Below, one piece after another: positions 6,401-59,548 of a stretch of DNA of 64,000 nucleotides (position 1 is its first letter; each line of letters starts with the position of its first letter). The stretch is from Watersipora subatra. Its lineage: Eukaryota > Bryozoa > Gymnolaemata > Cheilostomatida > Watersiporidae. The notes beneath the pieces are model-generated. The model made no database searches, was not told where the DNA came from, and saw only the letters and a program-made list of their open reading frames with translations. The DNA is taken from NCBI RefSeq assembly GCF_963576615.1, contig NC_088714.1, positions 65,759,167 to 65,823,166 on the forward strand, given 5' to 3'. The translations under genes and the position numbers were made by a program.

Positions 6401-9400
6401 TTATCCTAGTCTCCTGCATTGCTAATAACTCATGTCACCAATTCCCAATGGTGGTATCAGAAATTTTTAATTTGACTCACGCCTGTGCAATACCAATGTC
6501 AAGTATCGTTAGACCATTGTCACACATCTCCAATGCTTAGTTTCGTAAATTCCCAATACTTCTTACGCAAACCCAAGTATTTGTGTAACAAATTCTTGTG
6601 TAACCCCGAATTCGTAACATCAGTTTCCTGGCATAGTCCTGGTGTTACAAGTCAGCAAGATTGGTGTCTTGATCCACCAACATGGATCGTATATAGGCTG
6701 TTGACCATTATTTCTATTAACTTAAACATACCGGTAATACATACGAAAGACTGCTTGAAGGAGTTGCTTGTGTCCCCACTTGCTGTCTCGGTACTCCTGC
6801 GAAGTTGCACCACTGATCTCTGAGACGCATTGTGGTGGAGTCTTCAACGCTAGTAGTTGTTGGAACTCATAAAACCCAATTAGGGGACTGCATGCACTGG
6901 CTCCAATCAATGCGTCTTCTGCTTTCACCACTATTGTAACGGAAGAAACATGCCTTCCAACAAACATCTTCAGATATCTAATCACTAATAAAAACAGATC
7001 TAATAGGCATTTTATCTTCAGCAACTAAAGGCTTCAACTGTAATGCTCAAGTAGAAAATTATTTAAGGTTGGACCAATTACAGCTCTGAAAACACTACCT
7101 GCACCTATGCAATTCTCATTGATTGATAGTTGGGAGTTTGCACCAGACCGCCACCATGTGTATTCTTTGTAGTTCTGTGTTGTAAATAGTAACCACATGT
7201 ATGAATAGTACTGTAAGACTTTAACAGTCCCAATAAACATAACCAAACAAGGTTCAAGGGAAAGGGCAAGAGGAAGTAAAAGTTTGATAAGAGATACACA
7301 ACCTTGTTTAGAAAGCTGTACATCGCTAAACATTACCCTAGTCACCAAACTGTCACTAAACATTACCCTAGCCACTGACCTGTCACCAAACATTACCCGA
7401 GTCACTGACCTGTCACTAAACATTACCCTAGCCATTGGCCTGTCACTGAACATTACCCTAGTCACCAACCTGTCACTGAGCATTACCCTAGTCACTGACC
7501 TGTCAATGAACATTTCCCTAGTCACTGACCTGTCACTAAACATTACCCTAGTCACTGACCTGTCACTGGACATTACTCTAGTCACCAACCTGTCACTGAA
7601 CATTACCCTAGTCACTGACCTGTCACTAAACATTACCCTAGTAACTGACCTGTCACTGGACATCACTCTAGTCACTGATCTGTCACTGAACATTACCCTA
7701 GTCACTGACCTGTCACTGAACATTACTCTAGTCACTGACCTGTCACTAAACATTACCCTAGCCACTGACCTGTCACTGAACATTACCCTAGTCACTGACC
7801 TGTCACTGAACATTACCTGAATCACTGACCTGTCACCGAACATTGCCTTAGTCACTGACCTGTCACTGAACATTACCCTAGCCGCTGACCTGTCACTGAA
7901 CATTACCCTAGCCACTGACCTGTCACTGAACATTACTCTAGTCACCAACCTGTCACTAAACATTACCCGAGTCACTGACCTGTCACTGAACATTACCCTA
8001 GCCACTGACCTGTCACTAAACATTACCCTAGTCACTGACCTGTCACTGAACATTACTCTAGTCACCAACCTGTCACTAAACATTACCCGAGTCACTGACC
8101 TGTCACTGAACATTACCCTAGCCACTGACATGTTACTGAACATTACCCTAGCCACTGACCTGTTACTGAACATTACCCTAGTCACTGACCTGTCACTGAA
8201 CATTACCCGAGTCACGGACCTGTCACTAAACATTGCCTTAGTCACTGACCTGTCACTGAACATTACCCTAGCCGCTGACCTGTCACTGAACATTACCCTA
8301 GCCACTGACCTGTCACTGAACATTACTCTAGTCACCAACCTGTCACTAAACATTACCCTAGTCACTGACCTGTCACTGAACATTACTCTAGTCACCAACC
8401 TGTCACTAAACATTACCCGAGTCACTGACCTGTCACTGAACATTACCCTAGCCACTGACATGTTACTGAACATTACCCTAGCCACTGACCTGTTACTGAA
8501 CATTACCCTAGTCACTGACCTGTCACTGAACATTACCCGAGTCACGGACCTGTCACTAAACATTACATTAGTCACTGAACATTACCCTAGCCACTGACCT
8601 GTCACTGAACATTACCCTAGTCACTGACCTGTCACTGAACATAACTCTAGTCACCAACCTGTCACTGAACATTACCCTAGTCACCAACCTGTCACTGAAC
8701 ATTACCCTAGCCACTGACCTGTCACTGAACATTACCCTAGTCACTGGTCTGTCACTAAACATTACCCTAGTCACTGGTCATTCAATGAACATAGCCCTGG
8801 TCACTGAAGCATCAATTTGGATAAAATATCATGTAAGGATATTACTTGTTTAGAGAATGCTTTGGTTTATGTATGAAATAGATGCTTTGAGGTTCTATAA
8901 ATTGCAGATAAATTTAACCTATCACTGTTATCTATATTCTTAATTTTTTAATATAATATTTGTAATCCACGACCAAACAGAGCGAAGCGATTGGTTGGCA
9001 GATTTATGATAAATGCACATGTGCACACAACTCCCGAAAATTATTCATCAACAATGAGACGAACCCTTGTATCAAAATTTCATCAATAAATTTAACCATC
9101 GTTTTGTAGAGTCGTTAAAGTATAATAACGATACAAAACACATACAAACCTATTTAAACATGTTACCAAGTCTTTGTAAACTGTCGTTATTATCTTAAAA
9201 CTTACCCATCTGATCGGATTATACACAAATAGACAGATTTATTTGAACGGAAATTGCCACAAAACGCTTGAAAAGTTCGGTTTAATTAAAATTAAGACTG
9301 AAAATTGAAACGCCAATAAAGCCGTGCGACAGATAGTAGAACTATTTAGCAGTGCGCATTTCACGAGAAAACCTTGCTAATTTCACCAGTCTATGGCCTT

Positions 9401-15954: not shown

Positions 15955-17047
15955 ATGACACCTTCACCATTCACCTTTTCTCTTCTATTCCTATTGGTAA
16001 GCGCCTGGCATCATGATGTGCTTTTCTACTACTCACTATTCTCTTTTGTATTATTATTACTCATTTTGTCTCAGGAAACATTTTGACTTTAGTCTGAGCT
16101 TAGAATACAACCTTTGACATCTTTCCAGAATCGCATCTGCTCAAACCTGAGCTAATCTTGAGGCACTGAAACAACCTATGTATGTATTGTCTATTATATA
16201 TTATAATAGTGAGCATATGTTACCATCGCAGGTGGTGCTGCCGTGTGCTGCCAGAACATGTGATAAGAATGTGCCAGACTTACAGGAGTGTGCTCAATAT
16301 GGGAAGTACATCTGCACCATTCCTGAGAGAGCGGCTTACTGTCAGAGGTATTGTGGAATCTGCAAAGATGGTGAGAAGAATACCCAAGTATCAAACAGCA
16401 AGGAGGACGCCAACGAGGAAACAAGCTGTAAAGACACAAACCGACTGTGCGCATTCCGAAAAGCTAGCTGCAAGAACTCATTGGTTGTCAAATCTTTGTG
16501 CAAAAAATCTTGCGGTCTCTGTCTTCCGTCACCAGCTGTTGCCAGAATAATAACCAATACTCATCGGGTTATCGCATCAACATCCACTATCAAATCAACG
16601 GAAAGAACAGCTCCAGCAATGACAACTACAGTGAAATCAACACTACGAACCACCCAAAAGAAAAGTGAAAAGCTGACACATCCATTTATTCACTCCCAAA
16701 AACGCGAGTTACCACCGTGTAACCCCGGTATTCCTGATGCAATAACTTGTGCATTTGAGCCAGATGTTTGCGCAGTTGAAGAGAAAATGATGTTTTGCCA
16801 GCGCTACTGCGGTATCTGTCCCGAGGTACCAGCGGCCACTACTACCCTTCAACCGCCAACGAGTAAAAAAGTGTACCAAAGCAATGTCAAAGGTCCAGTG
16901 CTGGCTCAGCAGCCGAGCTCTGCTAAGGATTCATCGTGCGTGGATCTAACCAACTTTCTCTGTCCTATGTTCAAATGCATGAGTGATAACAAAGAGTTTA
17001 AAAAATTGTGTGAGAAACAAACTTTGTATATCTGTGACAGACAGTGA
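15955..17047 (+). CDS. Secreted protein with tandem ShKT domains
   Basis: Exons 15955-15996 and 16232-17047 join in phase 0 to a 285-aa protein. Exon 1 encodes a hydrophobic signal peptide (MTPSPFTFSLLFLL) that continues into VVLP from exon 2. Three complete six-cysteine ShKT modules follow: about residues 24-58 (ending CQRYCGIC), 75-106 (ending CKKSCGLC) and 171-204 (ending CQRYCGIC). A fourth begins near 248 (CVDLTNFLC) but lacks the final CxxxCxxC pattern. Between modules 2 and 3 and between 3 and 4 are Thr/Ser/Lys-rich linkers, probably O-glycosylated. ShKT modules are found in secreted enzymes, matrix proteins and ion-channel-binding peptides of many animals, so toxicity is not implied. 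Function is unknown. A TATA box and short leader support this start. Confidence 0.85.
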
Positions 17048-18180: not shown

Positions 18181-18365
18181 TGCAGAGTCTGACAGAGGCA
18201 TTTATTTAAATATAGATGGCGTCACTGGAAGATTGGAATAGTTGAAAGTTGAGCGATAGATTGGTTACTTCTGAACTTGTTCTGTGCTTGATATAAAGTC
18301 CCTGCAAACAGTTGACTGTTGACTACATTAGAATTAACTCGAAGTAAAAAAGCTCATCATTTTTA

Positions 18366-18542: not shown

Positions 18543-21500
18543 TTACTCTATAATTCTTGGCAATTCAGTGGCTGTACAGATCCATTTGTGCAGTAGACCG
18601 AGTTCCTTAGGAAATGTGTGGAATACAACAGGAGGAAAAGAGTCGGGACGCTTCTTACTCGCTTCGTATAACTAAAAAAGAAAGCCGAACAGAGCCCTCG
18701 CTATAAGTCTTAGAATTATACCACCAGACTTCCAGAGCAATAAGCTTTCCTGAGGAAATGCTGCTAGACATCGAGGATGTTAGACATCAAGGATGTCGGA
18801 CATCATGCAGCGTAAACATACCGAAAAAACTACATTTAAAATATTGCCAGTTTGTTATGAGTAGATGCCAACTGTCAACCTGCAATCAACAATGTTTAAA
18901 ACAATGTGATCACATCAAATTCGAGTAGACTTTTATCAGAAAGTATAAATATTTTTTATCATTTGAAACTTTGTTTGTTTTAGGTCATCTGAGTGCCAGG
19001 ATGTTTCAAGATAAAAAATAAAAAAAATTGATTGCAGTTAAAACGCTCAGAAAAAGAGACGTGCCCAGACTTGCCTATAATGATGCCAATAATCATGTGG
19101 CTGACTGTCTCGCTTACTGTATTCAAGTTACAGTGCTACGCGTCACTATTGACATAGTTTATTGTGTATTTGTTCATGATTGTTACAATAAAACTTTAAA
19201 TACAACCTTGGATACATTGCTATAGATTTCTAAAATGATTTAAAACTTGGTTGGTTAAAACTTTTCTGAATTTTTTTTTCTAAACACTTTGTAAACATAT
19301 GAGTAACCAATGCTGAGACCGTACATCTATCGCTTATAAACAAAAAATGGCACATTTAACATAATCTTGGAGAAGTCTAGGCACGCCTTTTTCTTCTGAG
19401 TGTTTGAACTTCAATCAAGTTTGGTCGATTTTCATCTTGAAACATCTTAGCAGTCAGATCACCTCAAACAAAAAAATTTCCAATGATGAAAAATTACTGT
19501 AAAACCTCTATTTGGATGCCATGGTGCTCTATTTTTCAACCCTTCCCGATAGTGGCAGTCAAATAGAGGTGGCGTTCAAATAAAGGCTGGCGTTGTATTC
19601 TTCAAATAGCTCGTCAGACTTTTAATAAGATAAATTTCACCCTTTTACGGGCAAAACGAATGTCACCTATATTTTGTACTTTTCTTCAGTTGGAGTGACA
19701 TTAACCATTTTAGATACAAAAAAACTGCTAACTCACCTCCAACTTGTTGTAGATCTCTAAATAAATATGCATTAGGAAGCCGAGAAATATCTCTACCAGT
19801 TGATATCTATTGCTTGCAATTGATCTGTGATGATATTATAGCCTGTGCTCTGCTCTGCAATTTGTTGAAGCTTTCAATTTTAATTTCGTTCTAAATTTGA
19901 ACGTATATTTTATTTTATACCAATTTATATAATAATGTTGCATGAAAACTCATAGTACTTATTTATATGTTTGCTATAGTTCGCAGCCAAAGCTGGCTTT
20001 TTATGTGCCATAGAAGAGGAGTTATGGGCGATGATTTATTATAAGTTGAGTGAAGATAACCGCAGGGTTGATATTAAATAATATGCTATAAATCTGAAAA
20101 TTCATATGTAATAGACTAATAAACTATCAAATGCTACAAATATATATTCAATAATAAATAACATAAACAAACCATACTTATAATGTATGCAGAAACAAAA
20201 ACTAACATTTTTGAAATAAAATATTTGCATCTTTTGCTCGGCCAGTTGGGTTCTGATTGTTGCTCGTTGTTCTGGCTGTTCAATACCTTCCAAAATGTCT
20301 GACCTCAACTCTACTTCTGCACTGTTGAGCTAGTCGATATTAGTGTTCAAACAATTTTTTTGGCAGAGCAAAACTTTGACGCGTCACATTTCGAGTAAAT
20401 AACAATAAACTTTCTGTGATGTTGCTTTCAAAGTTTCAATGAAATAACCGAAGAGCTTTGGAGTTGGAAAACAGACTTCGATACAAACAGAAACAATAAA
20501 AAAATTAATTGTTGTTGATGTAACCGAGTCATAATTAGTACGAACGATAGTCGACACTTCTCAATTGATCACTTGCTATTATTGTTTCGTAAAGATCAAA
20601 GAATGTCAAAGTGGTGGTCAAATAGAGGTGGCGTTCAATTAAAGGTGACATTTAATTAGAGGTTTTACGATATCTATGCTATCTAATAGAAATCTACTAG
20701 AATTTCATGTGATCGCATCTTAAAGTGGCACAATATGGCAGTGGATAACAGGCAATTGACAGTTGGCAATTGACAAATAACAATTGACAAATAGCAATAG
20801 GCAAATAAAGTAGACAAATGACAATTGACAAATGGCAATTGACGGTCGGCAATTGAAAGGAAAGCAACTGGCAAGTAACTGGTGAAATTAAACAACTGAC
20901 AAATTAAACAACCGATAAATTGAAACGATAAAAATGATAATTAGTTTATAAGTCATGCAAATAACTGGACTCATACCTTGACTCCAAGTGCATAGGGTAC
21001 AACGATGTCATCCTCCGCGTGCAGTATCAACACTGGCAACTCTATATGACATATGCTGCAAGAAGTCAGTAGTAGTAATGTGTGATATAAGTAACAGTAT
21101 ATGATATGAGTAATAGTGTGTAGTGTAGGTAACAGTATATGATATGAGTAATAGTGTGTAGGTAACAGTATATGATATGAGTAATAGTGTGTAGTGTAGG
21201 TAACAGTATATGATATGAGTAATAGTGTGTAGGTAACAGTATATGATATGAGTAATAGTGTGTAGGTAACAGTATATGATATGAGTAATAGTGTGTAGTA
21301 TAGGTAACAGTATATGATATGAGTAATAGTGTGTAGTGTAGGTAACAGTATATGATATGAGTAATAGTGTGTAGTGTAGGTAACAGTATATGATATGAGT
21401 AATAGTGTGCAGTATAGGTAACAGTATATGTTGAGTAATAGTGTGTAGTATAGGTAACAGTATATGATATGAGTAATAGTGTGTAGTATAGGTAACAGTA

Positions 21501-24500
21501 TATGATGAGTAATAGTGTGTAGGTAACAGTATATGATATGAGTAATAGTGTGTAGTGTAGGTAACAGTATATGATATGAGTAATAGTGTGTAGTGTAGGT
21601 AACAGTATATGATATGAGTAATAGTGTGTAGTGTAGGTAACAGTATATGATATGAGTAATAGTGTGTAGGTAACAGTAAATTAAGTGAGTGAAAAGGGGA
21701 GGAGTAGCGGTATCAGATGGAATCTCATCAGACGGGACAATTTTAATCTATTCCGGTCTCTTCACCTCTACGCATAGCTCAAGAGATAAAAAAGAAAACA
21801 AGCGAAGATGCTAGGAAGAAAGGGTGGAGACACGTACGATAAGTAAAAGGATAAGGAGAGAATACGGACACAAGTATGCGAAGTACAGCAATTAGTAATC
21901 TTATTGAGTGTCAGAGTAAACATAGTATTGGGTATTTGGGTCACTATGACCTACTCAGCGGCTAAAAACAGAAAGGAGAGGCATAAATGGCTGATAACTA
22001 GATGTCTAAGATATCTATGACTCAAAATCTTTGACACTGTATTTCAAGTGTAATACTTGGATAAGATTTGTGAGATAAAACAGTTTGTTCATTTAATAAA
22101 ACATTCACGCCTGTCCAAAGAATATCATTTATATAGTAACTAAACGTTACCTGGTTACCTAGAATAAAATTATATATCAGCCATTGACTGAAACATTTCA
22201 GATGGTTCAAAAGAAACAGCGTAAACTAGACGACAGTATTATTTCCCTCATCCGGTGTTTTTCTATTCAACCAACATATAGTTTGATACACATTAAATCT
22301 ATGAACAACCAAAAACCATCAGGAGTAAAACTCAGTGGAAACATGCATCTCATTGCACGAACACAGTGCTTGACGCGCTCTCAGCTGTAAAATGCAAGTA
22401 TTGCTCAATTGTTGAGGGGCAGCATGTATGTCCTACCCACATTTCTGGAGTGCAAGTCTTCGGGCTACAGCCTGAATATAACAGCCTGAACATAACTTAG
22501 CCTGTCATTCGTGCTCAAGGAGCCCACAGGAAAGATAAGTATTTCTACCTATAAGGATTGCCTCAAAGCGATGGGATCTCTTCCAACTTTTCTCATCAAA
22601 GCTGCCACAGTTGGTAGCTAAGGAAATAGCAAGAAGGCGCTGCTTCTAGAAGCAACCAGAGCCACCCAGTACATTAATAAAAAGTTAGCAGGCCAAACAG
22701 ATCAACCATGAGATAGTGTTAAAAATAGTGCAGAGCGAGTAAAATTATAAACAGTTCTCTTAGAGATGAGCTTACAACGGAAGCACAAAAAAAGCAAAAG
22801 ATAAAAAATGTGATGGAGTTGTCACAACAATAAAGTTGCCATGGCATGAAACTTACTGTTCTAGAACAGTGACGACGCCCTCTTCTCATTATGATATCAT
22901 AATTTTAATGGTATGGTGATGGTAGTTATTACCTCTTTACAATTAGATTTGCATAAAGTTGTGTTAACAACAGATTTAGCAGAGCTTTATGGATTACTCT
23001 ATGGATTAGATTTGAAGGTTGTCATGTCGAAAAGGATGCCTCAGCTTCTCTTCGACCTTCACTAGGGGTGTTAGAAACCAGAAAAGAAGTACTCACTGCT
23101 CATCATTTTGAAGGTAGATTCCATAAGAGTGCATTGCTTCAAGAAAAACATCATCAAACCACCAAAGCAGGCGGACGACCTTAGAGAAGGGGTGCTCTAG
23201 AGCCGCCTCAAAGACATTGTTGAACGGAGACTCGAGAATTAAGGCTCTAGGATATTCTTCCTTCTGTTCTGTGAGAAACCTCACAGCTTTGGTGGCAATA
23301 CTACAATAACGCATGATCAGTTGTGCTTTACATACACTACACTGTAGTATAGCATATGTAAGTAATATTGATTCAACTTAACGCTTTGCAGGTAACAGAA
23401 ATTCATGGTTAGGATATTTTACGCTCACTAACAGGTACATGTACATGTAGGTCTACCGTGTCAGGCTATCAATACCAATACCTTGTCTAGTTTAACATAA
23501 CCCTAAAGACATGGTACATACAGACACACCCGATAAAAATTCATTTGCGCCATGTTCATCTGTCTGTTTGTCATTAAGGGAAATAATGACCCAATGGATT
23601 AGAATGTATACCCCAATAAAAAAGATTTATTTTTATTGAGGGAGGACAACTTCAATACTTTCAGAGAAAACCACTCCACTAAAACTACATTGTATAAGGA
23701 GCTAAAGTCATCAAACGAAGCACATGCTGTAAAACGTTCAGTCATTATTTGTTCAGCCTTACGACAGCGATATCAGGCAACAGAATAAAGATGGCAGCCT
23801 TACAGTTCTCAAGTATCCAGTTAGAAGCCTCCACCTCTATTCATAAATATTGAATCCTTAAATGTTGACTTGCAACAAAATTCACATTACAGTTATTTGG
23901 TATCAAAAGATTCACCATGTCTTACTCGGTTGTGTTGTAGGTGCCAAATACATGGAAATGTGATTACAAGCTCTTAAAAGCTCAAAAACGAAAAGCCGCC
24001 GTAAATTGGAATCTATTTATCTAGCGTAGTCATTACAGTTTGGTTATCGTATTGTCACGTGATGTTCTCACGTGAATTGAAATGCCAATAAAAAGCTCAA
24101 TCTACTAGAAATTCCACTGTCATACAGCCCACGGCCAAAGTGATATTGGAAAAAAGAAAGGGTACTGATGGTTGAGAAATGCAATATTAGCAGTCAAATG
24201 GCACTGCAGTGCAATAGGATAACTGCAATGGTAGCTGTAATGTACTGGGTGTGGGTGTTATTATATACAACAAACAGCAATAACGAAAGGAAAAGATTAT
24301 ATGTTTATATCTCTCCCCCTACAATAGGAGAAATGCAATATTGGCCAATATTAGTAGTAAAATGCACTGATATTATTAGAATAACCAATATTATTAATAT
24401 AGTAATAATATAAAACCAATGCACAATTTTGTTTACATTTCAGAACATCATAGCTAACAATATCGAGAAGTGATATTTATATAGATGTTTAAAAAATCTA

Positions 24501-27500
24501 TTTAAAAAAGTGTTTGGTCATGACAAACAGCAATAATGAAAGGAAAAGATTATATGTTTATATCTCTCCCCCTGCAATAGAAGAAATGCAATATTAGAAG
24601 TAAAATGCACTGATATTATTAGAATAACCAATATTATTAATATAGTAATACAGTAATAATAGAAAACCAATGCACAATTTTGTTTATATTTAAAAACGTC
24701 ATAGCTAACAATATCAAGAAGTATCAAGAAGAATATCTAAACTTAAAATTAGATATCGTAATAATCTCATAATCGTTAGAAAAAAATATCATCGTCATTT
24801 CCTTTACTTACACTGCGTTGGACACCAGTTAGAATACCAAAGTACTCAAATGTGTCTAAAATGTCAGTTACTTTGAAATCGGCAAAAATGAAACGATTTC
24901 AGTACTCCTACGTTAATTACAGAAACTTTCGGCAATTCGACAATGCTATAGACTAGTGAAATGTGCACGTTATTCTTTCGTGAAATGCGCACGACTTAAT
25001 CGTTCTATTCTCTGTCGCTCGGCGTTTCAATTATCGGTCTTAACTTTGATAAAAGTGAGGCTTAGCAAGTTTTAATAACGATTTTCGTCCAAATAAATCT
25101 GTCTATTTGTGTATAATCTAATCAGATGGGTAGGTTTTAAGATAATGCCGACGGTTTACAAAGACTTGGTAACATATTTAAATAGGCTTATATGTGTTCT
25201 GTATCGTTATTATACTTTAACGACTCTACAAAATGATGGTTAAATTTGTGATGAAATTTCGAGACAAGGGTTCGTCTCATTGTTGATAAATAATTTTCGG
25301 GAGTTGTGTGCACATGTGCATTTATCATAAATCTCCCAACCAATCGCTTCGCTCGTGTTTTGTCGTGGGAAAACTTATCGTAGCACTAGTTTATGACAAA
25401 CACTTCGAGTTTTACCAAAGACCCCGTATCAAATATAGATGCTCGCTACTTTACAGTTTTGTTTTGGCTTGGACTAATCGTCAAGTCGTAACCTGATCAT
25501 GTGACCCAATACTTCAAAATAAATTTTTGCAGCACTTTTCGATTATCACAGGTAACCAACAGGCTCGTCATGATTACCAGACAATGATATGTACTCCTTC
25601 GAGCTAAGGTTAAAAAGTTTAACAATTTTTCAGGTAAGTTATAAGATATCAGTGCTAAAAGTGACAGCATTACAATGACGATAAAATAGACGTGTAAGAA
25701 CAATAGACATGGTTTCATTGAATGCGTGAAGTATATTTGTGAAAATATTTCGACGAATGAGATTGCATGAAAGTGTAAACAGAAACCATTCTGTAACAAC
25801 TACGTCCCATTTGAGCTGTTTTGGAAAGCGAATCCAAACTATGGCGGTCTCGTGTGGCTGCGATTAACTGTTCGTTTTTTAGCTTTTAAGAGCTTGTAAT
25901 CACATTCCCATATATTTTGCACCTACAAAACAACAAAGTAAAACATGGTGAATCATTTGATACCAAATAACTGTAATGTGAATTTGGTTGCAAATCAACC
26001 TTTAACAAATATTCAGGGCAGGTGCAGCCATTACGCTTGTGGAAATCTAATAGCTAGTCCTTGAAAAGTATTCCAATTCTTAGTTCAGGTAGACCAATAG
26101 GAAAAGTACAATAGCTATTATATATACATTATTATATAGAGCCTGTTTAAACGGCGCTGTGATACATAATGAAACTCTACATAAAAATAGTTAATTTTCT
26201 ACACATTTCTTTGGACCATCAAAGGTTGGGTCACCTGAATACCTCTACACACCTTAACTTCGCATCTTCAGTACAAATATTACTGAATTTACTTGCAATA
26301 GTCATTTACCTGAACTTTAATTGACAAAATTGTTTACTTTCAGTTCTCATTTAAAATATTTTTAGAAACTTTGTTTCAAGATGAAGATTTCTAGAATATT
26401 CCGACTTGACAGAAGAATACCAAAAGCCTAAAATAGTTTGTATTATCATTTTAAAGAATATCTAAATAAATATTTGTTTACAAATACAGTACAAAATGTT
26501 TAGTGTGAGATAGTTAATTATTAATTTCTTTGAGATTATTTTAAGCCTGCTGGCGCAATCATAACATCATGAAAATATTCATGTGCAGTTATCTACTCCT
26601 TTAGTAAGGTGAGACAAATCCATGTTTATGCATGACCAAGTAACAACAGCTATTAATAGTCTATTATACTATTAGTTGGTCACAGCTGGGTCGGTCGGAG
26701 ATGGAGCTGATGATGTAGATTGTAGAATAAAACTTTTTAAATGAATTATAAAATATTAATATTGTCTGAAATTATATAAAACTAATTAAATGAAACACCC
26801 ACGAAAAACGAGCTAACATTATTGAGCCAGAAATAAAAAAATGTATTTGGAGTTATTAAAACTATGAGAAAATACAAAATCACAATTTGGGTTTTTCAAA
26901 AATCTAATTATTCTCAGATTTGTCTGCTTTTTAATACACAAATTTGAAATGATAACTTTTAAGGTAACAGACTGAGAAAGACTAGGGAATGATAAACAGA
27001 AGAGGCATACCCGGTGCCAAGTGAGTGGCCCCAGACATATATTGGAATATGAGGTCCTGCTTTCTCTCTTAGCATCAGATAGAGACTGACCACATCACTC
27101 ATGACACCATCTTCTGAAGTCGGAGAGCCTGTGGAGTCACCAAATCCTGCAAAGCACAAAAGTGAGAACAACTTCATAATTGTCCTGACAGATTAGCGAC
27201 AATTTTTTTAAACTTTATAAAATGACAAGGCAAAAGTTGATGTATGTGACAAATAGTAAGATGGCAGGGAGCACAGATTACAATTTTAAACAAGTGTTGG
27301 AATTTCACCAATGATTATTTGCCATGGAGTATGGCATCTGAGGTCAAAGTTTAATCTTTCTAGCATGATAATTTGGGTTTGTAGCCTCACACATTTTCAA
27401 CCGTGTGAACCACTTGTTGATGGCTGGTCTTATGTTGCCCCCAGCTCAATCACTAAATATTTAGACAACTTTTTTATTTATGCCCAAGAAACGAGCGAAG

Positions 27501-30500
27501 AAGAGACAGGCAGAGGTAGATAGACTGACCTCTGTAGTCAAATGCTATAAAATGAAAGCCCAGCGCTGCCATCTGTTGATAGAGTACCACTCTATGATAA
27601 AGAGCCCTGAAACACAGCGGACAGTTATACAGACTAGGTTAATAGCATGAAAAATCTTACTAACCTCTATAATCTAAGGCTATAATGTGGAACTCCTGGG
27701 ATGATAACAATTTATACATAATCACTCTATTATCCGTGCCTCTGCAACATAGAATCAGCAAGACTTGTGTCAGTGTTTACCTAAAGTCATCAAGTCTCTC
27801 TTTTACTGCCAGCTACAGAGTTCTTATATAGACTGAATGACTCTATTTGGACCTCTATGGTACCTGGTATTTGGTAGCTCGATGTCTCTGCTAAATTAAA
27901 AAAAAAACTCTTTTCACAAAACTTCTGAGACCAGTTACATTCATCATGCAATAAATTTAAAATTATACAGACAAGAAAATGACCGAAATTCTCTCTTTTG
28001 AATGACAACAAACAAGTCAAATTCTTATGATATAAGAATTTGACTTGTTTGATTAAATTAAATTTTGATATAAATTATATAAAATTACATGATTTTCACT
28101 AAAATAAAGCTAGAAACATACTATTATAAAATATGTCGTCAGAACATTGGATACCGGTATTTTGGAAGAACTGGTCGTGAAACTAAGAAGTAAGAATATA
28201 ATATTATACCAATCCTGGTGTGACCAGGAAACGCTAGCCTTAGTGCAGCAAACCCAGATGTGAGCAGAAATATTAACCCTAGTGCAGCAAACTCTGGTGT
28301 GACCAAAAATCCTGACCCTTGTGTGAACAAAAAAACACTAACCTTAACCCACCGAATGCTATGGGGTGACCGAGAAAGGCCAAATCTAGTGCAGCAAACA
28401 CATTGGAAGCTAAGACCCGCTGAACATTCAGTAGAATTAAAGAGTTAACCTTCTTTCAGTTTGAATAAATAAAAAAGACAACTATCAACAGGCGAGGTCT
28501 GTTGGCAAATGACAGACCTGGTACCAGTATTTCCATGGCAATAGAGCATGATTGATGGACCGGCAGACAACAGAGATTCAAATTCCTCTGGTTGTAAACC
28601 TGGCTTCTCCAAGGACTTGGGGAGAACATGCCTACAAGAATCTGTCATTTTATCAAATTTGTCATTTATTGTATTATATTCAGGTATTCTTGTATTATAT
28701 TCAGTTATTATTTTATTATATTCATGAATGTGGAAGGTTCACTTCAAGGTTCTCCAGCGTATTAATTTAAAAACATCTTCCAACACAATGGTCAATGTGA
28801 AAGACTAGACCTACACCTGAACATAGCTGAGGTCTTTGTCCAACGGCTGGACACCCGATAGGGCTGCACAAACTTGTACCAAAGCTTCTTATGTAAATAT
28901 GTGATAGCATTAACCTGAGAGTGCTTCAGGAAAATATGGAAAAAAGTAAAAAATTTCCAACGAAAAATACCGACAAGATACAATAAAATAATATCAAATG
29001 GCAATAATAAAATAAATCAAAGACACCCACCAGACACCAACGGTTATGTTGTCCTCCACATGATGGTAGAAGTTTCTAGCATAGTCTAGTTGAACAGAGC
29101 TGGGGTCAGACAGGTTAACGTTGTACGGTATCTTAACTACAACACATTTCATAGTACAATACATCCTTACGCAGTAATGTAACCATGTGACAACCCAATG
29201 AAGTGCTTGTTAAAGTCTTGCTTTACCTTGGAAATAGAGTCTGATATACTTTGTGTGTTTTGCAAACAAAAATGAAAGGATGTTGATCTAAAGACTAATG
29301 AGCTTTTTGCAAATCTCACATGTGAAGATAACTCCTGCAGACATGTGAATAACCTTTCTGAAAGCACGATTTGATATTATAATGAATGGTTGGCCTGAAG
29401 TTGAATGTTGCTATAATAATATTTGATTCCTTCTGCTAAGATCTCCCTGTCCGATAGGGTTATTATAAACCAAATCAAGAGACTAATCAGGTGCAGTGCT
29501 AGCTACCTTTATGCTATGGCAGATATACAATAATAGAAAATTCAAGCTATAACTAAAATGTTGGCAACTTGAATAAAAAGGAGAGTGATGCAAGGGTGTA
29601 AAGTACACAGTATTACATAAACATGCTCATAGAAAATCAGCTCTGACAAGTGACAGCGAAATGCACATTTGATGCCAAAATAAAAAGGTTCAAGGTACAG
29701 CACTAATATCTTACACGCATTAAGGTAAACGATGTGCTTTGAAATCTGGGGAAATATTTTGATGACGGCCGGAGCGACGACTGCGAGGAAGACGACTAAA
29801 GATATGAGGAGGTAGAATACTGTCCAACACAAAAACCTACAAGAGAGGAATTTGTTACACTTGAGAAAACTAGTCAATCCATGGGTACAGTTTACTCTAT
29901 TAATATATATGTATATATGTAGCTCTATATTCATACCTGTCTATAATCCTCATACTTACGCCTACTCTATATACATGTCTATGCATTGTTTATAAACCTA
30001 TATACATGTATATTTCTCCCTATCTATAATTCTCATACTTATACCTATATAGAGATCTATGTATACTTCTATGTGTCTATAATTCTCATACACCTACATG
30101 TATATATATGTAGACCCATCTATATTCATACCTGTCTATAATTCTCATACACCTACATGTATATATATGTAGACCCATCTATATTCATACCTGTCTATAA
30201 TTCTCACACATCTACATGTATATATATGTAGACCCATCTATATTGAAACCTGTCTATAATTCTCATACATCTACATATATGTAGACCCATCTATATTCAT
30301 ACCTGTCTATAATTCTCATACGTATATAGAGATCTATGTATATTTGTACGTGTCTATAATCTTCACAAACCTATATATACATATATATATATATAACTAT
30401 ATATATATATATAACTATATATATATAAATATATATATGTATATATATATATGTATATATGTAAAATTGGGTAAAAATGAAAGTTAAAGTTAAGTTTAAA

Positions 30501-31717
30501 ACAACTTTATTACTAATAGTTTCATATTGCCATGCAATAATCATCAGATAAAATTGTTAGCACTGAAAACGACTTATATATAGACTTATATATAGTCGTT
30601 TTCAGTGCTAACAATTTTATCTGATGATTATTGCATGGCAATATGAAACTATTAGTAATAAAGTTGTTTTAAACTTAACTTTAACTTTCATTTTTACCCA
30701 ATTTTACATCGCTCTATTTTAATATTGAGCACTTTCATGCAAGAGACTGTTCATACTGCATCTACTGTATATGTATATATGTATATATATATAGACATAT
30801 CTACACTTCTACCTTTTATATTCTTCATACCTACACCTACTATATTTATTCAACACTATGTTTATGGCTGCCCTTATTCCTCATACCTGCCTATAGACTT
30901 CAAACAACTCGCGCAAGTCTGGGGAGCGACATCCAAGGCACTCCTTTCACCACCACGACCATCAGTCTCTGATGATGGACTCTCATCTGTATTTCTGAGC
31001 CCGCTACCTGCCAGGATAAAACTGAGTTGTTTGGATAACAACTACAGTTGGTAGTTGTACTACCAACTATCATACTACTGGTTAGAATGATAGCCATAAA
31101 AGCTCTTATATCCCTTTAGAATAACTACACTTTTTGGTGAGCCAGTGTGATGAACATATTTCTCTAAATTTTGGTGACAAGTAATTCTACTTCCTTAGCA
31201 GAATTTATTCCCTCTCCGCTGCATGTATAGCACTATATTTCTAACCAGATTTAGCCTGGAACTAATTATACTGTGATACCTGCGCATGGGATTTGACACT
31301 TGAGTAATTGCAGCTGAATGCCCTGCCTAACACCACCAACGGTCCTTCTGTGATTTGAACCGTTGACCTAATGATTATATGCCAGCGCACTAACCTCTGA
31401 ACCACGCCTGCTCCTGTACAATGCATAGGCTGCTCCTAGCCAATACACAATGCCCTTGCGATACATTTACCACTACCAAATAGTAAATCAGAAACAAGCA
31501 ATAGATATGTCGATCACACCACTTCCTCATTGCCTCTATAGACATTAATGCTGCTGCCAACCTTCAAGTTACTACTATAAACAAACAAACGAGCAGTGAT
31601 CTACTACAATTGTCTTACAGAGAGTATTACGTAAAGCAAATACCTAAACACAAGGTCTTACCAACATTTCCTTCCATTCTTCTTCGACGCATCCTTTCTG
31701 CGAGTTTCTCAAATTTT
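18543..31717 (-). CDS. ABHD12: ABHD12-type lysophosphatidylserine lipase
   Basis: Exons in transcript order: 31717-31662, 31007-30887, 29836-29715, 29136-29031, 28631-28518, one of 27741-27665 or 27606-27530, 27146-27011, 23300-23097, 21055-20977, 18671-18543. All phases match. Counting from the first in-frame ATG in exon 1 (31692) the product has about 372 aa (human 398). ABHD12 is a single-pass ER membrane serine hydrolase that cleaves lysophosphatidylserine and related lipids. Seen here: one TM segment (about 52-75), the HGNTG oxyanion motif (159-163), nucleophile Ser232 in GHSLG, acid Asp319 or Asp320 in LILHAEDD, and His358 in LLHKW. ESPFNN and LPRIIE also match the family. The true start may be in a further upstream exon, since the frame is open at the 5' side of exon 1. 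The stop TAA overlaps a possible donor (GA/GTAAGT), so another short terminal exon is possible. Confidence 0.92.
19498..20670. mobile_element. Family B transposon, copy 1
   Basis: The left end CTGTAAAACCTCTATTTGG is mirrored by the right end (complement TCGTAAAACCTCTAATTAAA), with TA on both outer sides, as for Tc1/mariner-type insertion. Subterminal repeats of the type CAAATAGAGGTGGCGTTCAA occur at both ends. No transposase is found. It lies in the last ABHD12 intron. Related copies are at 34882-35202, 39604-39702, 50098-50206 and 56268-57260. Confidence 0.8.
20740..20910. repeat. Degenerate 12-14-bp CAATTGACAAAT repeat
   Basis: Imperfect tandem copies of GGCAATTGACAAAT immediately before ABHD12 exon 9 on the genomic + strand, that is, just downstream of that exon in the transcript. 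Confidence 0.8.
21060..21685. repeat. 36-38-bp minisatellite
   Basis: About 17-18 copies of a unit containing GTAACAGTATATGATATGAG followed by TAATAGTGTGTAGTGTAG, with shorter units that lack the TAGTGTAG tail. It lies in the ABHD12 intron and begins 5 bp from exon 9 (on its acceptor side), so the acceptor borders the array. Confidence 0.95.
24105..25370 (-). mobile_element. Helitron-like element, copy 2
   Basis: Read on the - strand it starts TCCCACGAC and ends TTTCTAG, as in copy 1 at 8966-10152. Comparison with the uninterrupted family C copies shows a clean insertion without target duplication (host AGTTT / TATATTGAGC). Its middle (24170-24905) differs from copy 1 and resembles parts of the family F element at 44960-47031, and holds a direct duplication. 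Confidence 0.6.
24270..24740. repeat. Direct duplication, period about 250 bp
   Basis: The segment running from GACAAACAGCAATAA through the TATTAATATAGTAATA run to the GCACAATTTTGTTTA motif is present twice, starting near 24268 and 24520, about 95 percent alike with small indels. Confidence 0.85.
27530..27606 (-). other. ABHD12: ABHD12 alternative exon 6b (77 nt)
   Basis: Enters in phase 2 and leaves in phase 1, encoding 25 whole codons from ALYHRVVLY to FIAFDYR. This is the strand/helix segment after the oxyanion loop. Acceptor TTTCAG and donor GTCAGT are good. It resembles vertebrate ABHD12 (HRVELY...LGYHVV.FDYR) in its HRV.LY and LGFH positions. Length and phases equal those of exon 6a, 58 nt upstream in the transcript. 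Confidence 0.88.
27665..27741 (-). other. ABHD12: ABHD12 alternative exon 6a (77 nt)
   Basis: Same length and same phases as exon 6b, encoding 25 whole codons from GTDNRVIMY to IIALDYR. About 10 of 25 residues match 6b. Acceptor TTGCAG and donor GTTAGT. It keeps the YK.LSS seen in vertebrate ABHD12 but has SQEF in place of the usual LGYH-like turn. Including both exons would put the exon 6b sequence out of frame and reach a stop (TAG) inside it, so only one can be used per mRNA. Confidence 0.88.
28010..28050. repeat. Perfect 19-bp hairpin in ABHD12 intron 5
   Basis: Arms AAACAAGTCAAATTCTTAT and its exact complement, separated by 3 nt. It lies in the intron that leads into the alternative exons 6a/6b, about 270 nt before exon 6a. 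Confidence 0.9.
28200..28400. repeat. Imperfect ~55-bp repeat, 3-4 copies
   Basis: The motif CCTTAGTGCAGCAAAC..TGGTGTGACCA recurs near 28218, 28268, 28320 and 28390 with considerable divergence, also inside ABHD12 intron 5. Confidence 0.7.
29935..30345. repeat. ~59-bp minisatellite with CTGTCTATAATTCTCATAC core
   Basis: Six to seven copies, each with the palindromic ACATGTATATATATGTAGA segment. Divergent at the edges. It lies in ABHD12 intron 2. Confidence 0.9.
30355..30458. repeat. TA-rich microsatellite
   Basis: (TA)n with occasional TGTA and TAAC steps, abutting the large foldback element. Confidence 0.95.
30459..30709. mobile_element. Near-perfect 251-bp foldback element
   Basis: Two arms of about 112 bp, apparently identical, begin ATGTAAAATTGGGTAAAAAT and mirror around a short AT-rich centre (GACTTATATATAGACTTATA). 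Nothing separates the arms except that centre. The arms match without visible mismatches, implying a young insertion or gene conversion. It lies in ABHD12 intron 2 and would fold into one long hairpin in the pre-mRNA. Confidence 0.92.
31344..31414 (-). repeat. tRNA-derived SINE head / tRNA pseudogene
   Basis: On the - strand the 71-nt stretch has an A-box-like TGGTTCAGAGG, then TTAGTGCGCTGG, and a B-box GGTTCAAATCA in tRNA spacing. The ends do not form an acceptor stem, so a SINE head is more likely than a functional tRNA. Confidence 0.65.
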
Positions 31718-45800: not shown

Positions 45801-48800
45801 AGCTGACTGTGACTTTTTAGATTTAGTAGCCAAAAATGACAATGAATCAGGTTCAAATTGTGATTGTAATTATTTTACATCTGGAAGTAATATTGATGAA
45901 GAAGCTGGTAGCAGTAATGATGAGATGATGCCAGTGCCTGGAAGAATATTACCAATATGAAGAGAGATAAATCTCCTACCATTCATCAGTTTGTAGTAGC
46001 GATAGGTCCAGTATTTACTCCAGTAGATGCTGTGTGATTGGTACAAAAAGACAAGAATAAGCACATGGTGCAAAGACTGTGATGTAGGCCTTTGTAAAGG
46101 AAAATGCTTTTGTATATATTATACAGAAATCATGCTTATTAAAGTGAACACTTGTATCATAAAAAGATGTACAAAATATATATTTATCTTGGTAGATCTA
46201 CATTTATAAATATATTTATGTTATACATTTTTATTCATTTATAATATATAGATATATGTACATCTGGACATATACATGTATACATATGCATGTTTATACA
46301 TAGATATATGCACACATTAACAAACAAAAGAGTGTATAAACCTTTTAAAAGAAATTGATTTTCCGGAAAATTAATTCGTCCAGGGGAGTCTGATATAGTC
46401 CTGAAAATTCGCCCGCGAAGGGGTTAATTTTGCAGATTTTAAAAACGGCCTGGCAGTACCGCGATATCGGGCACAGCCAAATCATCAACAAAATCTTTAG
46501 AAAAATAACAACAGCAACATATTGCATACCATCGGTCACTATATGCTTTGATCTTTTAAATTCGAATAATTATTCTTATAATTAAATCTGATAATATTCT
46601 TATAAAATCGAATAATTATTCTTACAATTAAATATTGTAATAATCTTGAAGAATCGCTAGGAAAATAGCATCGTAATTCCCTTTACTTTCACTGCTTTTG
46701 ACATCAGTTGGAATACCAAAGTACTCGTATAAGTGTCCAAAATGTCAAAGTTATCTTTAAAATCAGCAAAAAAGAAACGATTATATTTATCGGACACCAT
46801 TTTTCAGTACTTCCCGTTTAGCATAGCAACGGTTTTAAGGGGGTTTTTCCGAGTGTTGAAGACTTCTATTGGCTAAATTGACTTCAGCTTCAGAAAGATC
46901 ACTCTTTGATTGGTCCAGATGCACGTGTTACAAAAATCGGTACCAATATCATAAATTCAGTTAATGCAACTTCAAAGTCGGATAACTCAACTTAGTGATT
47001 TGCGACTTAACCATGGTTTCTGTGACCATGACCCATATATGGAAATGTGATTACAAACTCTTGAAAGCTCAAAAACGAACAGTTAATCGCCGCCATCACG
47101 AAACTGCCGTAGATTAGAATCTCTTTCCAAAATGGCTCAAATGGGATGTAGCTGAACAAGATGGCTTCTGTTTACACTTTCATGCAACCCCATTCGTCGA
47201 AATATTTTCACAAATATACTTCACGCATTCAATAAAACCATGTCTATTGTCCTTGCGCGTCTATTTCATCATCATTGTAATGCTTTCACTTTCAGCACTG
47301 ATATCTTATAACCTACCGTGAAAATTCATTTAATTTTTTAACCTTAGCTTGAAGGAGTCTATCATTGTCTGATAAACATGACGAGCCTGTTGGTCACCTG
47401 TGATAATCGAAAAATGCTGCAGAAATTATTCGCGCTGTTTGGCAGGAAGTTCGGGTCACATGATCAGATTACGACTAGACGATTAGACCAAGCCGAAACA
47501 AAACTTTTAAGTAGCAAGCATTTATATTTGATACGGGCTCTTCGGTAAAACCCGAAATGTTTGTCATAAACTAGTGCTACGAGAAGTTTAATATTGAACC
47601 TTTTATTGGCCTTTCAATTCACGTGAGAACATCACATGTCAAAACAATAACCAAATGGGTTGACTGCAGCAGAGAAATAAACTGATTCCAATCTACGGCG
47701 GTTTCGTGATGGCGGCGATTAACTGTTCGTTTTTGAGCTTTTAAGAGTTTGTAATCACATTTCCACATATCTTACACTTACAACACATCTGAGTAAGACA
47801 TGGTGAATCTTTTGATACCAAATAACTGTAAAATGAATTTTGTTGCAAGTCAACCTTCAAAACTATGCGAGCAACAGAAATAAATCATCTGAAGGAGAGT
47901 GCATACATATGTACTGCTCTGCTGTACTCTAGTGTTTTGGAGAGTGCATGCATATGTACTGCTCTATAGTACTCTAGTGTTTTGGAGAGCGCTTGCATAT
48001 GTACTGCTCTATAGTACTCTAGTGTTTTGGAGAGTGCATACATATGTACTGCTCTATAGTACTCTAGTGTTTTGGAGAGTGCATACATATGTACTGCTCT
48101 ATAGTACTCTAGTGTTTTGGAGAGCGCTTGCATATGTACTGCTCTATAGTACTCTAGTGTTTTGGAGAGTGCATGCATATGTACTGCTCTATAGTACTCT
48201 AGTGTTTTGGAGAGTGCATGCATATGTGCTGCTCTATAGTACTCTAGTGTTTTGGAGAGTGCATGCATATGTACTGCTCTATAGTACTCTAGTGTTTTGG
48301 AGAGTGCATGCATATGTACTGCTCTATAGTACTCTAGTGTTTTGGAGAGTGCTTGCATATGTACTGCTCTATAGTACTCTAGTGTTTTGGAGAGCGCATG
48401 CATATGTACTGCTCTATAGTACTCTAGTGTTTTGGAGAGTGCATGCATATGTACTGCTCTATAGTACTCTAGTGTTTTGGAGAGTGCATGCATATGTACT
48501 GCTCTATAGTACTCTAGTGTTTTGGAGAGTGCTTGCATATGTACTGCTCTATAGTACTCTAGTGTTTTGGAGAGTGCATGCATATGTGCTGCTCTATAGT
48601 ACTCTAGTGTTTTGGAGAGTGCATGCATATGTACTGCTCTATAGTACTCTAGTGTTTTGGAGAGTGCATGCATATGTACTGCTCTATAATACTCTAGTGT
48701 TTTGGAGAGTGCATGCATATGTGCTGCTCTATAGTACTCTAGTGTTTTGGAGAGTGCATGCATATGTGCTGCTCTATAGTACTCTAGTGTTTTGGAGAGT

Positions 48801-51800
48801 GCATGCATATGTGCTGCTCTATAGTACTCTAGTGTTTTGGAGAGTGCATGCATATGTACTGCTCTATAGTACTCTAGTGTTTTGGAGAGTGCATGCATAT
48901 GTACTGCTCTATAGTACTCTAGTGTTTTGGAGAGTGCATGCATATGTACTGCTCTGTAGTACTCTAGTGTTTTGGAGAGTGCATACATATGTACTGCTCT
49001 ATAGTACTCTAGTGTTTTGGAGAGTGCATGCATATGTGCTGCTCTATAGTACTCTAGTGTTTTGGAGAGTGCATGCATATGTACTGCTCTATTATAGTAC
49101 TCTAGTGTTTTGGAGAGTGCATGCATATGTGCTGCTCTATAGTACTCTAGTGTTTTGGAGAGTGCATGCATATGTACTGCTCTATTATAGTACTCTAGTG
49201 TTTTGGAGAGTGCATGCATATGTACTGCTCTATTATAGTACTCTAGTGTTTTGGAGAGTGCATGCATATGTGCTGCTCTATAGTACTCTAGTGTTTTGGA
49301 GAGTGCATGCATATGTACTGCTTTATAGTACTCTAGTGTTTTGGAGAGTGCATGCATATGTGCTGCTCTATAGTACTCTAGTGTTTTGGAGAGTGCATGC
49401 ATATGTACTGCTCTATAGTACTCTAGTGTTTTGAGAAACTTTGGACATCTTGCTGGAAATTACATTGCTTGTCGAGACAATTGTTTGCTCACTCCGTGTC
49501 AAAAGATTTGCATTTAGAGGACATCATCATAAATCAAGGTTTAAGTGCATTATGAATTTACATACTCTATGTAAAAATAATCTATAAAAACACTATGTAA
49601 AACATTCTATGTAAAAATACTCTATGTGAAAGTATTTATGTAAAAACAATCTATGTAAAAACTGTCTATGTAAAAACACTATGTAAAAATTCAATTCTAA
49701 ATCATTTGAAGAATGAGGTTTCTATTTCAATATCCGATAACTCCAATGTAGCGCCAGCAATTTCAGGCACTTTTCTAAGATTGAGGCTAAATATAAAGCC
49801 GTGGCAGTCTTTAGTTTACATAGTAGTTGCTATGATTGTAAGTAACATGTAAGTTGTTATGATTGTAAGTAACATGTAAGTTTTATGATTGTAAGTAACA
49901 TGTAAGTTGTTAAGATTGTAAGTAACATGTAAGTTGTTATGATTGTAAGTAACATGTAAGTTGTTAAGGTTGTAAGTAACATGTAAGTTGTTATGATTGT
50001 AAGTAACATGTAAGTTGTTAAGGTTGTAAGTAACATGTAAGTTGTTATGATTGTAAGTAACATGTAAGTTGTTAAGGAAGTGGCGGTCAATTATTTGCGC
50101 TCAGTGACTTGCGCTCAGCTTAGTGGCACTCAAATAGAGGTGGCGTTCAAATAAAGGTGGCGTTCAAATAAAGGTGGCATTCAAATACAGGTTTTACGTA
50201 GATCTAGGTATTAACACATGCACTAGAGTGTCACGTATCTTCATGCGATAAGCATCTTGATGTTACTTGGTGTCTACACCCTTATACGTAGGCACCACCT
50301 GGTGGCTGTATACTTACATCTAGGCACAACCTGGTGTCTATATAGTTATACCTAATGAGCCACCTATTGTCTACATGCGTATACTCATGTGTCAGGTGTA
50401 AACCCGTGTCCGTACTCAATGGTATTAAGTTTATGCCCACAGCCAGGAGTTACATTCTGCTGATAGATGATGGTAAACAATATCTTCTTCAGAGTCTGAC
50501 CAACTATACTTTGTACTGCAATACAAAGGAGCTCCGCAGACGACTGTGCAGGTGGGATACACGTGCCCATTCTGTCTGAAGAAGACTCATCCTGCGACCC
50601 TTGTTCTCCTACTTAAGCACATGAGACTTTGTCATAATAGACTTCTTTTTTTATACAAGGTCAGTCGCTTCCCTTTCTGTGGTTGCACCCATCCCTCCAC
50701 ACTCGGAGTATTTCTGCCTACTCACAGGAGTCATCTAGCTTCTCTATTGGAATTGTTCCCTCTTTACTCGCTAGATTTACCTAGGTCTTACATCTCGTAG
50801 TTTCTCTTGTAGCTACTTTTTATCGAAGTTATCTCCCTCACTGTCATTACCTTTATGTGCGGATGTTATTTCTTCTGGTATTAGCTTGAATTATATCTCT
50901 TCCAGTACATGAAATCAGTATCCATTCACAAAAGCTTTGTATTCTCCCTCTGATCAGGGCCCCTATTGTTATTACTTTGGGGGTCTTGTATTCCCGACGT
51001 ACAGAGAGTCCTATACCTTTTCTGATACCATTCCTTAGTTGGTTCATAGTACCCAGCATAAGTTATACCTACATAAGACTTATATAGACTGTGTATTTGA
51101 TAAGAGTAAGTTATACCTACGTAATAGTTATAGAGACTGTGTATTTGACAAGAGTTAGTTATACCTATATAAGAGTTATATAGACTGTGTATTTGATAAG
51201 AGTAAGTTATACCTACATAAGAGTTATATAGTCTGTGTATTTGATAAGAGTAAGTTATACCTGCGTAAGAGCTATATAGACTGTTTGTTTAATAAGAGTA
51301 AGTTATGCCCATGTAAGAGTTATACAGACAGTTTCTCTGATAGGAAATGGAGGGAGAGGCCGCCATCACAGTTACAGTGAATACATTTTATGACGGGTCA
51401 TACAGCGGCAACCCTCTTGACATTATTCCGTCTCAGAAGCAAGCACCCTCAATCTGTGAGTCTTTCAAATGTGTAGAGCCAATGAGACGCGCGCCTTATA
51501 CTGAAGTACTGAATATCAGGTAGGTCTACTCTGCATATACGCGTCAGTCGTCTTTGCATACAGTATAGACCCTCCCGTCTCATTACAACGAACTTCGAAG
51601 ATTTCAAATTTTGCATAGCATTACATGTTTTATACAGTTGTGCTATGCCTGGGCTAACATTAGCTTAAGAATGGGTAGCTAGAGGAGGATTACTTCATGA
51701 AGTGAGTGTTTAGCAGTTAAAAATATAGAGTTGTTCCCTCTCTGCATTGGTTCAACTTGGTCATCGTCAGCTCATAGGTACTACTGTATTACCAGGTTGC

Positions 51801-59232: not shown

Positions 59233-59548
59233 AATTGTAAACTGTTACAGCTGCCTGCCAAGTACCTATTGCATGACAGTTTTTCTCTCCCTAAATTTTC
59301 AAATACATCACATCAATGAATCTAAACTAAACTTGGTTTGTACAGTGTAGGGAGCAAACATAGCCTGTATTTTCTACTCAAAGGTTGAGTGACCATGACA
59401 AAGAACTCCTTCCTTAAAACATTAACTACGTTAAGACATCCCTTTGCATTTTTCTCTTTCAAGCTACTGAGCATAGGTCCTTCACTCATCTTTATGGGTC
59501 ATGTGTGTTCCTGTCTTGTGTCTGGGTTTGTTCAGGCTGTCACTATCC

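What the first reader, a model, noticed from the sequence alone, without database searches (positions are those of the whole stretch)
27530..27741. Equal-length mutually exclusive exons in ABHD12
Two 77-nt exons (6a 27741-27665, 6b 27606-27530) sit 58 nt apart with identical entry and exit phases, and each encodes the same 25-residue element next to the oxyanion loop and active-site entrance. They share about 10 of 25 residues, so this is an old duplication. Using both would reach an early stop. The choice could tune lipid specificity. I know of no described ABHD12 isoform pair of this kind, but could not search.
Basis: partly seen in the sequence, partly recalled or inferred. Interest (0 to 1): 0.85.

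Follow-up and report, generated by a model that had tools for sequence, protein, structure and literature searches.

The report
Swappable exon pair in bryozoan ABHD12
A lipid-cutting enzyme gene in a bryozoan, a colonial sea animal, appears to carry two interchangeable versions of one exon that would rebuild part of the enzyme's core; the pair looks real and functional, but which tissues use which version and what it changes remain untested.

Summary
On the minus strand, two 77-nt exons (27741-27665 and 27606-27530) lie 58 nt apart, with canonical splice sites and the same phases. Either completes an open ABHD12 frame; both or neither reaches a stop. The window is from the bryozoan Watersipora subatra. 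NCBI's "ABHD12-like isoform X1" equals the 6a splice form letter for letter; a 6b protein was not seen. Each exon encodes helix alphaA, strand beta4 and the DYR(G) turn of the hydrolase core. They share 11 of 26 residues, and none of 20,000 shuffles scored as high. Both fit the ABHD12 profile far better than simulated neutral decay, though both are divergent members. 6a has Asn where 63 of 64 aligned relatives have His; 6b keeps the His. The 58-nt intron, probably too short for a workable 5' splice site to branch point distance, plus frameshifting, would explain mutual exclusion. Tuned lipid specificity is only a guess; altered activity or stability is as likely. My searches showed no ABHD12 pair of this kind. 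It is a new member of a known kind: tandem duplicated, mutually exclusive exons. RNA evidence is missing.

The parts
27665..27741 (-). Exon 6a, 77 nt, encodes (R)GTDNRVIMYKLLSSQEFHIIALDYR(G)
   Evidence: part of NCBI model P0001, which equals the spliced 6a model letter for letter
27530..27606 (-). Exon 6b, 77 nt, encodes (R)ALYHRVVLYQQMAALGFHFIAFDYR(G)
   Evidence: intact, canonical splice sites; no protein or RNA record of it seen
27607..27664 (-). 58-nt intron between 6a and 6b; adenines fitting a loose branch-point motif only at +17, +26, +37 from the 6a donor
28518..28631 (-). Shared upstream exon ending ...LYCHGNTGT(R): beta3 and oxyanion-loop motif
27011..27146 (-). Shared downstream exon, (G)FGDSTG...WGHSLGTG, with nucleophile motif GHSLG
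29031..29136 (-). Constitutive ABHD12 exon
29715..29836 (-). Exon with most of the long N-terminal helix, presumed transmembrane
30887..31007 (-). Constitutive ABHD12 exon, N-terminal part
31662..31717 (-). First exon of the model seen here; NCBI start codon at 31692 (one search drew the exon one base too early)
23097..23300 (-). Constitutive exon, IATKAVRF...LILESPFNN...
20977..21055 (-). Constitutive exon with the motif LILHAEDD (catalytic Asp by recalled family knowledge)
18547..18671 (-). Constitutive exon with LLHKW (catalytic His by recalled family knowledge)
18265..18301 (-). Last coding exon with stop

Best explanation
Exons 6a and 6b are a tandem-duplicated, mutually exclusive exon pair in the ABHD12 (lysophosphatidylserine lipase) gene of Watersipora subatra. 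Shown from sequence: both are intact, homologous, the same length and phase, and each completes an ABHD12 frame. Inferred: the 58-nt intron is too short to hold a branch point far enough from the 6a donor, so 6a and 6b cannot be joined efficiently. Any transcript with both or neither carries an early stop and is probably destroyed by nonsense-mediated decay. The cell thus makes two enzymes that differ only in helix alphaA and strand beta4 of the hydrolase core. 6b keeps the family's near-invariant His169 and 6a has Asn. The most likely effect is a difference in activity, stability or substrate preference between two otherwise identical membrane lipases, with choice by tissue or stage.
For: Exact structure, phases and frames. 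An independently predicted NCBI protein, 'ABHD12-like isoform X1', equals the spliced 6a model over all 383 residues. The label 'isoform X1' (NCBI convention, recalled) implies at least one other protein isoform, and that 90%-identity cluster holds 2 member sequences. Homology beyond chance. Profile fit of 54 and 52 bits against 49-77 for 60 gap-free relatives; in six settings of simulated neutral decay 0, 0, 1, 0, 0 and 0 of 1035, 1371, 1737, 1241, 1619 and 1961 open copies reached the other copy's score. Of a 130-protein panel, 80 match 6a and 78 match 6b by tblastn (E <= 1e-3), 59 both. 43 of 64 relatives share more residues with 6a, and 51 of 64 more with 6b, than 6a and 6b share. The stretch occurs once in the genome. 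The other introns of this gene model are 245-3710 nt. Precedents: U2AF1 exons Ab/3, where including or excluding both gives stops and NMD (PMC5224494 passages), and OGDH 4a/4b, enforced by branch points 25-41 nt from the 5' splice site, below a threshold of about 50 nt (PMC7969005 passages).
Against: No RNA evidence was available; 6b usage has not been seen. The second member of the P0001 cluster could differ elsewhere. Both exons score near the bottom of the family (each above 1 of 60). The simulations start from the living copies, not an ancestor, and hold no indels. Differences by codon position (11, 5, 14) are only weakly skewed. The branch point is guessed by motif; the 50-nt threshold comes from vertebrate work, and minimal intron length in this species is unknown. 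No second bryozoan carrying the pair was found.
Confidence: 0.83

Rival explanations
1. Only one copy (6a, as in the NCBI model) is used; 6b is a silent or decaying leftover of an exon duplication.
For: Only 6a was seen in a public protein. A search with the 6b region gave 6 proteins among 7 candidates: the 6a-bearing P0001 and five distant relatives, no 6b protein.
Against: 6b is open, has canonical sites, keeps the near-invariant His169, Arg170, His183 and DYR, and scores 52 bits, where neutral copies of 6a score on average about -2, 17 and 30 at full, half and quarter divergence. A 6b isoform would be about 96% identical to P0001 (15 changes in 383-391 residues) and so hidden inside the 90% cluster.
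Confidence: 0.07
2. The pair acts mainly as an on/off switch: double inclusion or skipping makes unproductive transcripts that set ABHD12 dose (poison-exon logic), and the protein difference matters little.
For: Both 6a+6b and exon skipping give early stops.
Against: The copies differ at 15 of 26 residues, with isoform-specific changes at near-invariant positions; the 58-nt intron disfavours double inclusion.
Confidence: 0.07
3. Assembly or allelic artefact, for example a duplicated fragment from the other haplotype.
For: None found.
Against: Copies are only 61% identical in DNA (47 of 77), far beyond allelic difference; the stretch occurs once in the 783.7 Mb assembly; the genome paper reports PacBio HiFi data and a primary-assembly QV of 63.2 (passages).
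Confidence: 0.02

Closest known systems
U2AF1 exons Ab/3 (vertebrates)
   Same: Tandem duplicated exons; inclusion or exclusion of both gives stops and NMD (PMC5224494, passages seen).
   Different: Different gene; seven residue changes there against 15 of 26 here; the intervening introns were not compared.
OGDH exons 4a/4b and alpha-tropomyosin exons
   Same: Mutual exclusion enforced by branch points too close to the upstream 5' splice site (OGDH 25-41 nt; PMC7969005 passages; tropomyosin only as a title in its reference list, and recalled).
   Different: OGDH's intron is 118-131 nt in birds and mammals; here it is 58 nt and the branch point is not mapped.
Human tandem duplicated exon substitution events (PMC9741552)
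   Same: Homologous exon swap leaving the rest of the protein identical; described there as mostly ancient, with mostly conservative substitutions (passages).
   Different: The term ABHD does not occur in that paper's main text (supplements not held); this event is in a bryozoan.
ABHD12 of vertebrates, molluscs and arthropods
   Same: Same gene family: 30-43% identity to P0001 in alignment A2, GHSLG and AEDD-type motifs.
   Different: 0 of 125 proteins (P0001-P0125) holds two DYR[GSN] motifs, the sign of both versions in tandem. Isoforms at 90% identity or more are merged in that database, and only 120 of 655 matches were listed.

Membership tests
ABHD12 lipase | Best sequence relatives are ABHD12 proteins | tested here: met
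   655 matches, 120 listed; listed rows with a name are ABHD12, ABHD12B, ABHD12-like or generic (hypothetical/unnamed protein, AB hydrolase-1, S33)
ABHD12 lipase | Alpha/beta-hydrolase fold, GxSxG nucleophile motif, N-terminal membrane helix | tested here: met
   GHSLG and AEDD present; Pfam Hydrolase_4 and Abhydrolase_1 above cut-off; model mean pLDDT 90.7 with a long N-terminal helix 42-78, membrane insertion inferred; Foldseek and VIA matches to hydrolases
ABHD12 lipase | Lysophosphatidylserine lipase activity | not testable with these tools
   needs enzyme assay
Tandem duplicated mutually exclusive exons | Adjacent homologous exons, same phase, each completing the frame | tested here: met
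Tandem duplicated mutually exclusive exons | A sequence feature that forbids joint inclusion (frame or short intron) | tested here: met
   stop if both or neither; 58-nt intron. Branch point by motif only
Tandem duplicated mutually exclusive exons | Both exons used, one at a time, in RNA | not testable with these tools
   no RNA reads; 6a in an NCBI model, 6b not seen
Dscam-type competing RNA structure | Strong docking/selector pairing | tested here: inconclusive
   fold of 27500-27780 is ordinary, z -0.32; in 27147-28517 two distant 16-nt inverted repeats at 81% and one local 31-nt hairpin

The most novel reading that the evidence does not exclude
One gene makes two functionally distinct ABHD12 enzymes by exchanging helix alphaA and strand beta4 of the catalytic core. 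The 6a form, with Asn instead of the His kept in 63 of 64 aligned relatives, would be an enzyme of altered chemistry or a damped partner, so that splicing rather than a second gene sets lysophosphatidylserine signalling in bryozoan tissues.
Probability: 0.3. Interest if true: 0.62.

Novelty: new member of a known kind. Interest (0 to 1): 0.5.

Why it matters
ABHD12 loss in people causes PHARC. Two listed PHARC missense changes, Arg186Pro and Thr202Ile (PMC10557151 passages), fall by motif and spacing at residues 170 and 186 of this protein, inside the swapped element. A natural animal pair of alternative alphaA-beta4 cassettes on an otherwise identical enzyme would give a ready test of what that element does in ABHD12, and would add a lipid hydrolase to the genes with mutually exclusive exons.

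Tried and rejected
Artefact or chance pairing: rejected on identity, single occurrence and shuffles. A third copy of exon 6, or duplicates of other exons of this gene: tblastn of a 130-protein panel over the window at E <= 1e-3 gave no alignment away from the gene's exons (which replaces a coarser binning). Competing RNA structure as the main mechanism: no support. Other bryozoan copies: in the listed rows of the three protein searches (120 of 655, 6 of 6, 5 of 5) the only likely one is P0002, an unnamed 215-aa fragment 66% identical, which begins inside the exon (VIALDYRG) and cannot tell a from b; that it is bryozoan is my guess from its identity. Solved structures by sequence: no match for the 109-aa piece with 6a, 5 bacterial-type hydrolase sequences for the full 6b isoform.

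Literature; 3 papers hold 'ABHD12' and 'mutually exclusive exon'; none was opened; 24 papers, 15 listed, none opened; 136 papers, 12 listed, all with 0 occurrences of ABHD12; the other 124 were not seen; none; 1 paper, on trout. No title or abstract start shown names such a pair; this is not proof of absence, and subscription journals are outside the library.

Human exon boundaries: c.620-2A>G in intron 6 puts the human exon 6 end at c.619, which by my motif mapping is the same place and phase as the 6a/6b donor. Arg186 (c.557) is listed in exon 5, so the human counterpart is split; its upstream boundary was not found. Distances from the exon to the active site could not be measured, because model coordinates are not in the Python box. 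In the VIA table no ABHD12 chain is listed; that says nothing about the fold.

Full report
What is there. On the minus strand between 31717 and 18265 lies a multi-exon gene whose spliced product is an ABHD12-type membrane lipase. I set exon ends by hand at canonical splice sites (the first exon was drawn one base early there and should start at 31717). The two candidate exons are each 77 nt, end on the same phase, and are separated by 58 nt. Joining either between 28518 and 27146 gives an open frame of 391 residues plus stop. Joining both gives a stop inside 6b, and skipping both gives a stop two codons after the junction codon.

Whose genome. The own-genome search gives 783,720,542 bases in 239 contigs. 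The best protein match, 383 residues, is NCBI's [quoted passage not shown]. The published W. subatra assembly is 783.70 Mb (abstract; passages). That protein equals my spliced 6a model from the ATG at 31692 to the stop, letter for letter, so it confirms those junctions. The "isoform X1" label, by NCBI convention as I recall it, means at least one further isoform. The cluster at 90% identity holds 2 member sequences, while a row such as P0003, with one sequence in three sources, counts 1. I could not see the second member, so this is a hint, not proof, that 6b is annotated.

More than chance. 6a and 6b share 11 of 26 residues and 47 of 77 bases. The ungapped score without the shared Arg is 57; 0 of 20,000 shuffles reached it (z 7.2). 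Scanning the minus strand for AG-77-GT gave 263 stretches, 62 open in that phase; after 6b the next best against 6a scores 0, and after 6a the next best against 6b scores 1. On the plus strand (51 open of 247) the best against 6a is 4. In the whole genome the 212-base stretch matches once. Protein searches with a 6a piece and a 6b piece each give five places: three in this gene and two weak hydrolase matches in long open frames on other contigs (E 0.006 to 0.04).

Are both under selection? Against a profile from 64 relatives (alignment A2), 6a scores 54 bits and 6b 52. The 60 gap-free relatives score 49 to 77, median 68, so both are divergent members, each above 1 of 60. Neutral mutation of one copy to the observed divergence gives means of -2 and -4 bits, at half the divergence 17 and 15, at a quarter 30 and 28. 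Of 1035, 1371, 1737, 1241, 1619 and 1961 open simulations in six settings, 0, 0, 1, 0, 0 and 0 reached the other copy's real score. The simulations start from the living copies and hold no indels. Differences by codon position are 11, 5 and 14 in 26 codons, a weak skew. Of a panel of 130 proteins, 80 match 6a and 78 match 6b in tblastn at E <= 1e-3, 59 of them both, and none matches elsewhere in the window off the gene's exons.

Age. 43 of 64 relatives share more residues with 6a than 6b does, and 51 of 64 share more with 6b than 6a does. The copies are therefore as far apart as phyla are in this element, which fits an old duplication or fast divergence. One shared oddity fits a duplication within the bryozoan line: at residue 172 both copies have Ile or Val, where 54 of 64 relatives have Glu or Gln and none has Ile or Val. 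A second bryozoan would settle this and was not found.

What differs. The exon covers residues 165-191. In the predicted structure (mean pLDDT 90.7) that is helix 168-179 (alphaA), strand 182-187 (beta4) and the DYR(G) turn, directly after the oxyanion-loop motif HGN at 159-161 (strand names and loop role from general knowledge of the fold). Both copies keep Arg165, Arg170, Tyr174, His183 and Asp-Tyr-Arg 188-190. 6a has Asn at 169, where 63 of 64 aligned relatives have His. In a cruder motif count over 125 proteins, P0001 included, 120 have His, 1 has Arg, 3 gave no match, and only P0001 has Asn. 6b keeps the His but has Met at 177, where 58 of 64 have Leu and 2 have Met. Each copy thus departs at a different near-invariant position. 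In human ABHD12 two PHARC missense changes, Arg186Pro and Thr202Ile (passages), map by the HRV...VVT spacing to residues 170 and 186, inside the swapped element. That mapping is mine and rests on motif spacing.

How exclusion works. The other introns of the gene model are 245 to 3710 nt; this one is 58 nt. Adenines fitting a loose branch-point motif lie in it at +17, +26 and +37 from the 6a donor. OGDH exons 4a and 4b are kept apart by branch points 25-41 nt from the donor, below a proposed threshold of about 50 nt (PMC7969005 passages). U2AF1 exons Ab and 3 show the frame-and-NMD safeguard (PMC5224494 passages). Both logics are met here by sequence. No special RNA fold was found. The branch point and NMD are inferred, not measured, and the threshold comes from vertebrate work.

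Known or new. Six paper searches bearing on ABHD12, hydrolases or bryozoans with exon duplication or mutually exclusive exons showed no such pair in the titles and abstract starts listed; none of the papers in those lists that hold the word ABHD12 was opened, and subscription papers are outside that library. The main text of the survey of 236 human tandem duplicated exon events does not contain "ABHD". I file this as a new member of a known kind.

Noticed in passing
window 23858-23995 and 25868-26005: A 138-nt inverted repeat, 91% complementary, with 1872 nt between the arms, in the intron after 27011: looks like an inserted fold-back element.
   Followed up: no
window 30459-30574 and 30594-30709: A 116-nt inverted repeat, 100% complementary, with 19 nt between arms, in an ABHD12 intron: hairpin-type insertion or inverted duplication.
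   Followed up: no
window 7329-8807, 47894-49433, 59540-61161 and others: Many long minisatellite arrays (23 overlapping rows at score 400 or more, units 15-263 nt); three stop-free stretches of over 500 codons lie in two of them, most likely because the units are multiples of three.
   Followed up: partly
window 16151-17044 (+): A 298-aa open frame with one ShK domain match (23.6 bits, cut-off 20.9), Cys-rich elsewhere too by eye, beside the ABHD12 3' end.
   Followed up: partly
P0073 and P0107 (Ischnura elegans ABHD12 isoforms X2 and X3): X2 carries two tandem versions of the LVLESPFNN segment and X3 only one: a separate duplicated exon in a damselfly ABHD12, perhaps also alternative.
   Followed up: partly
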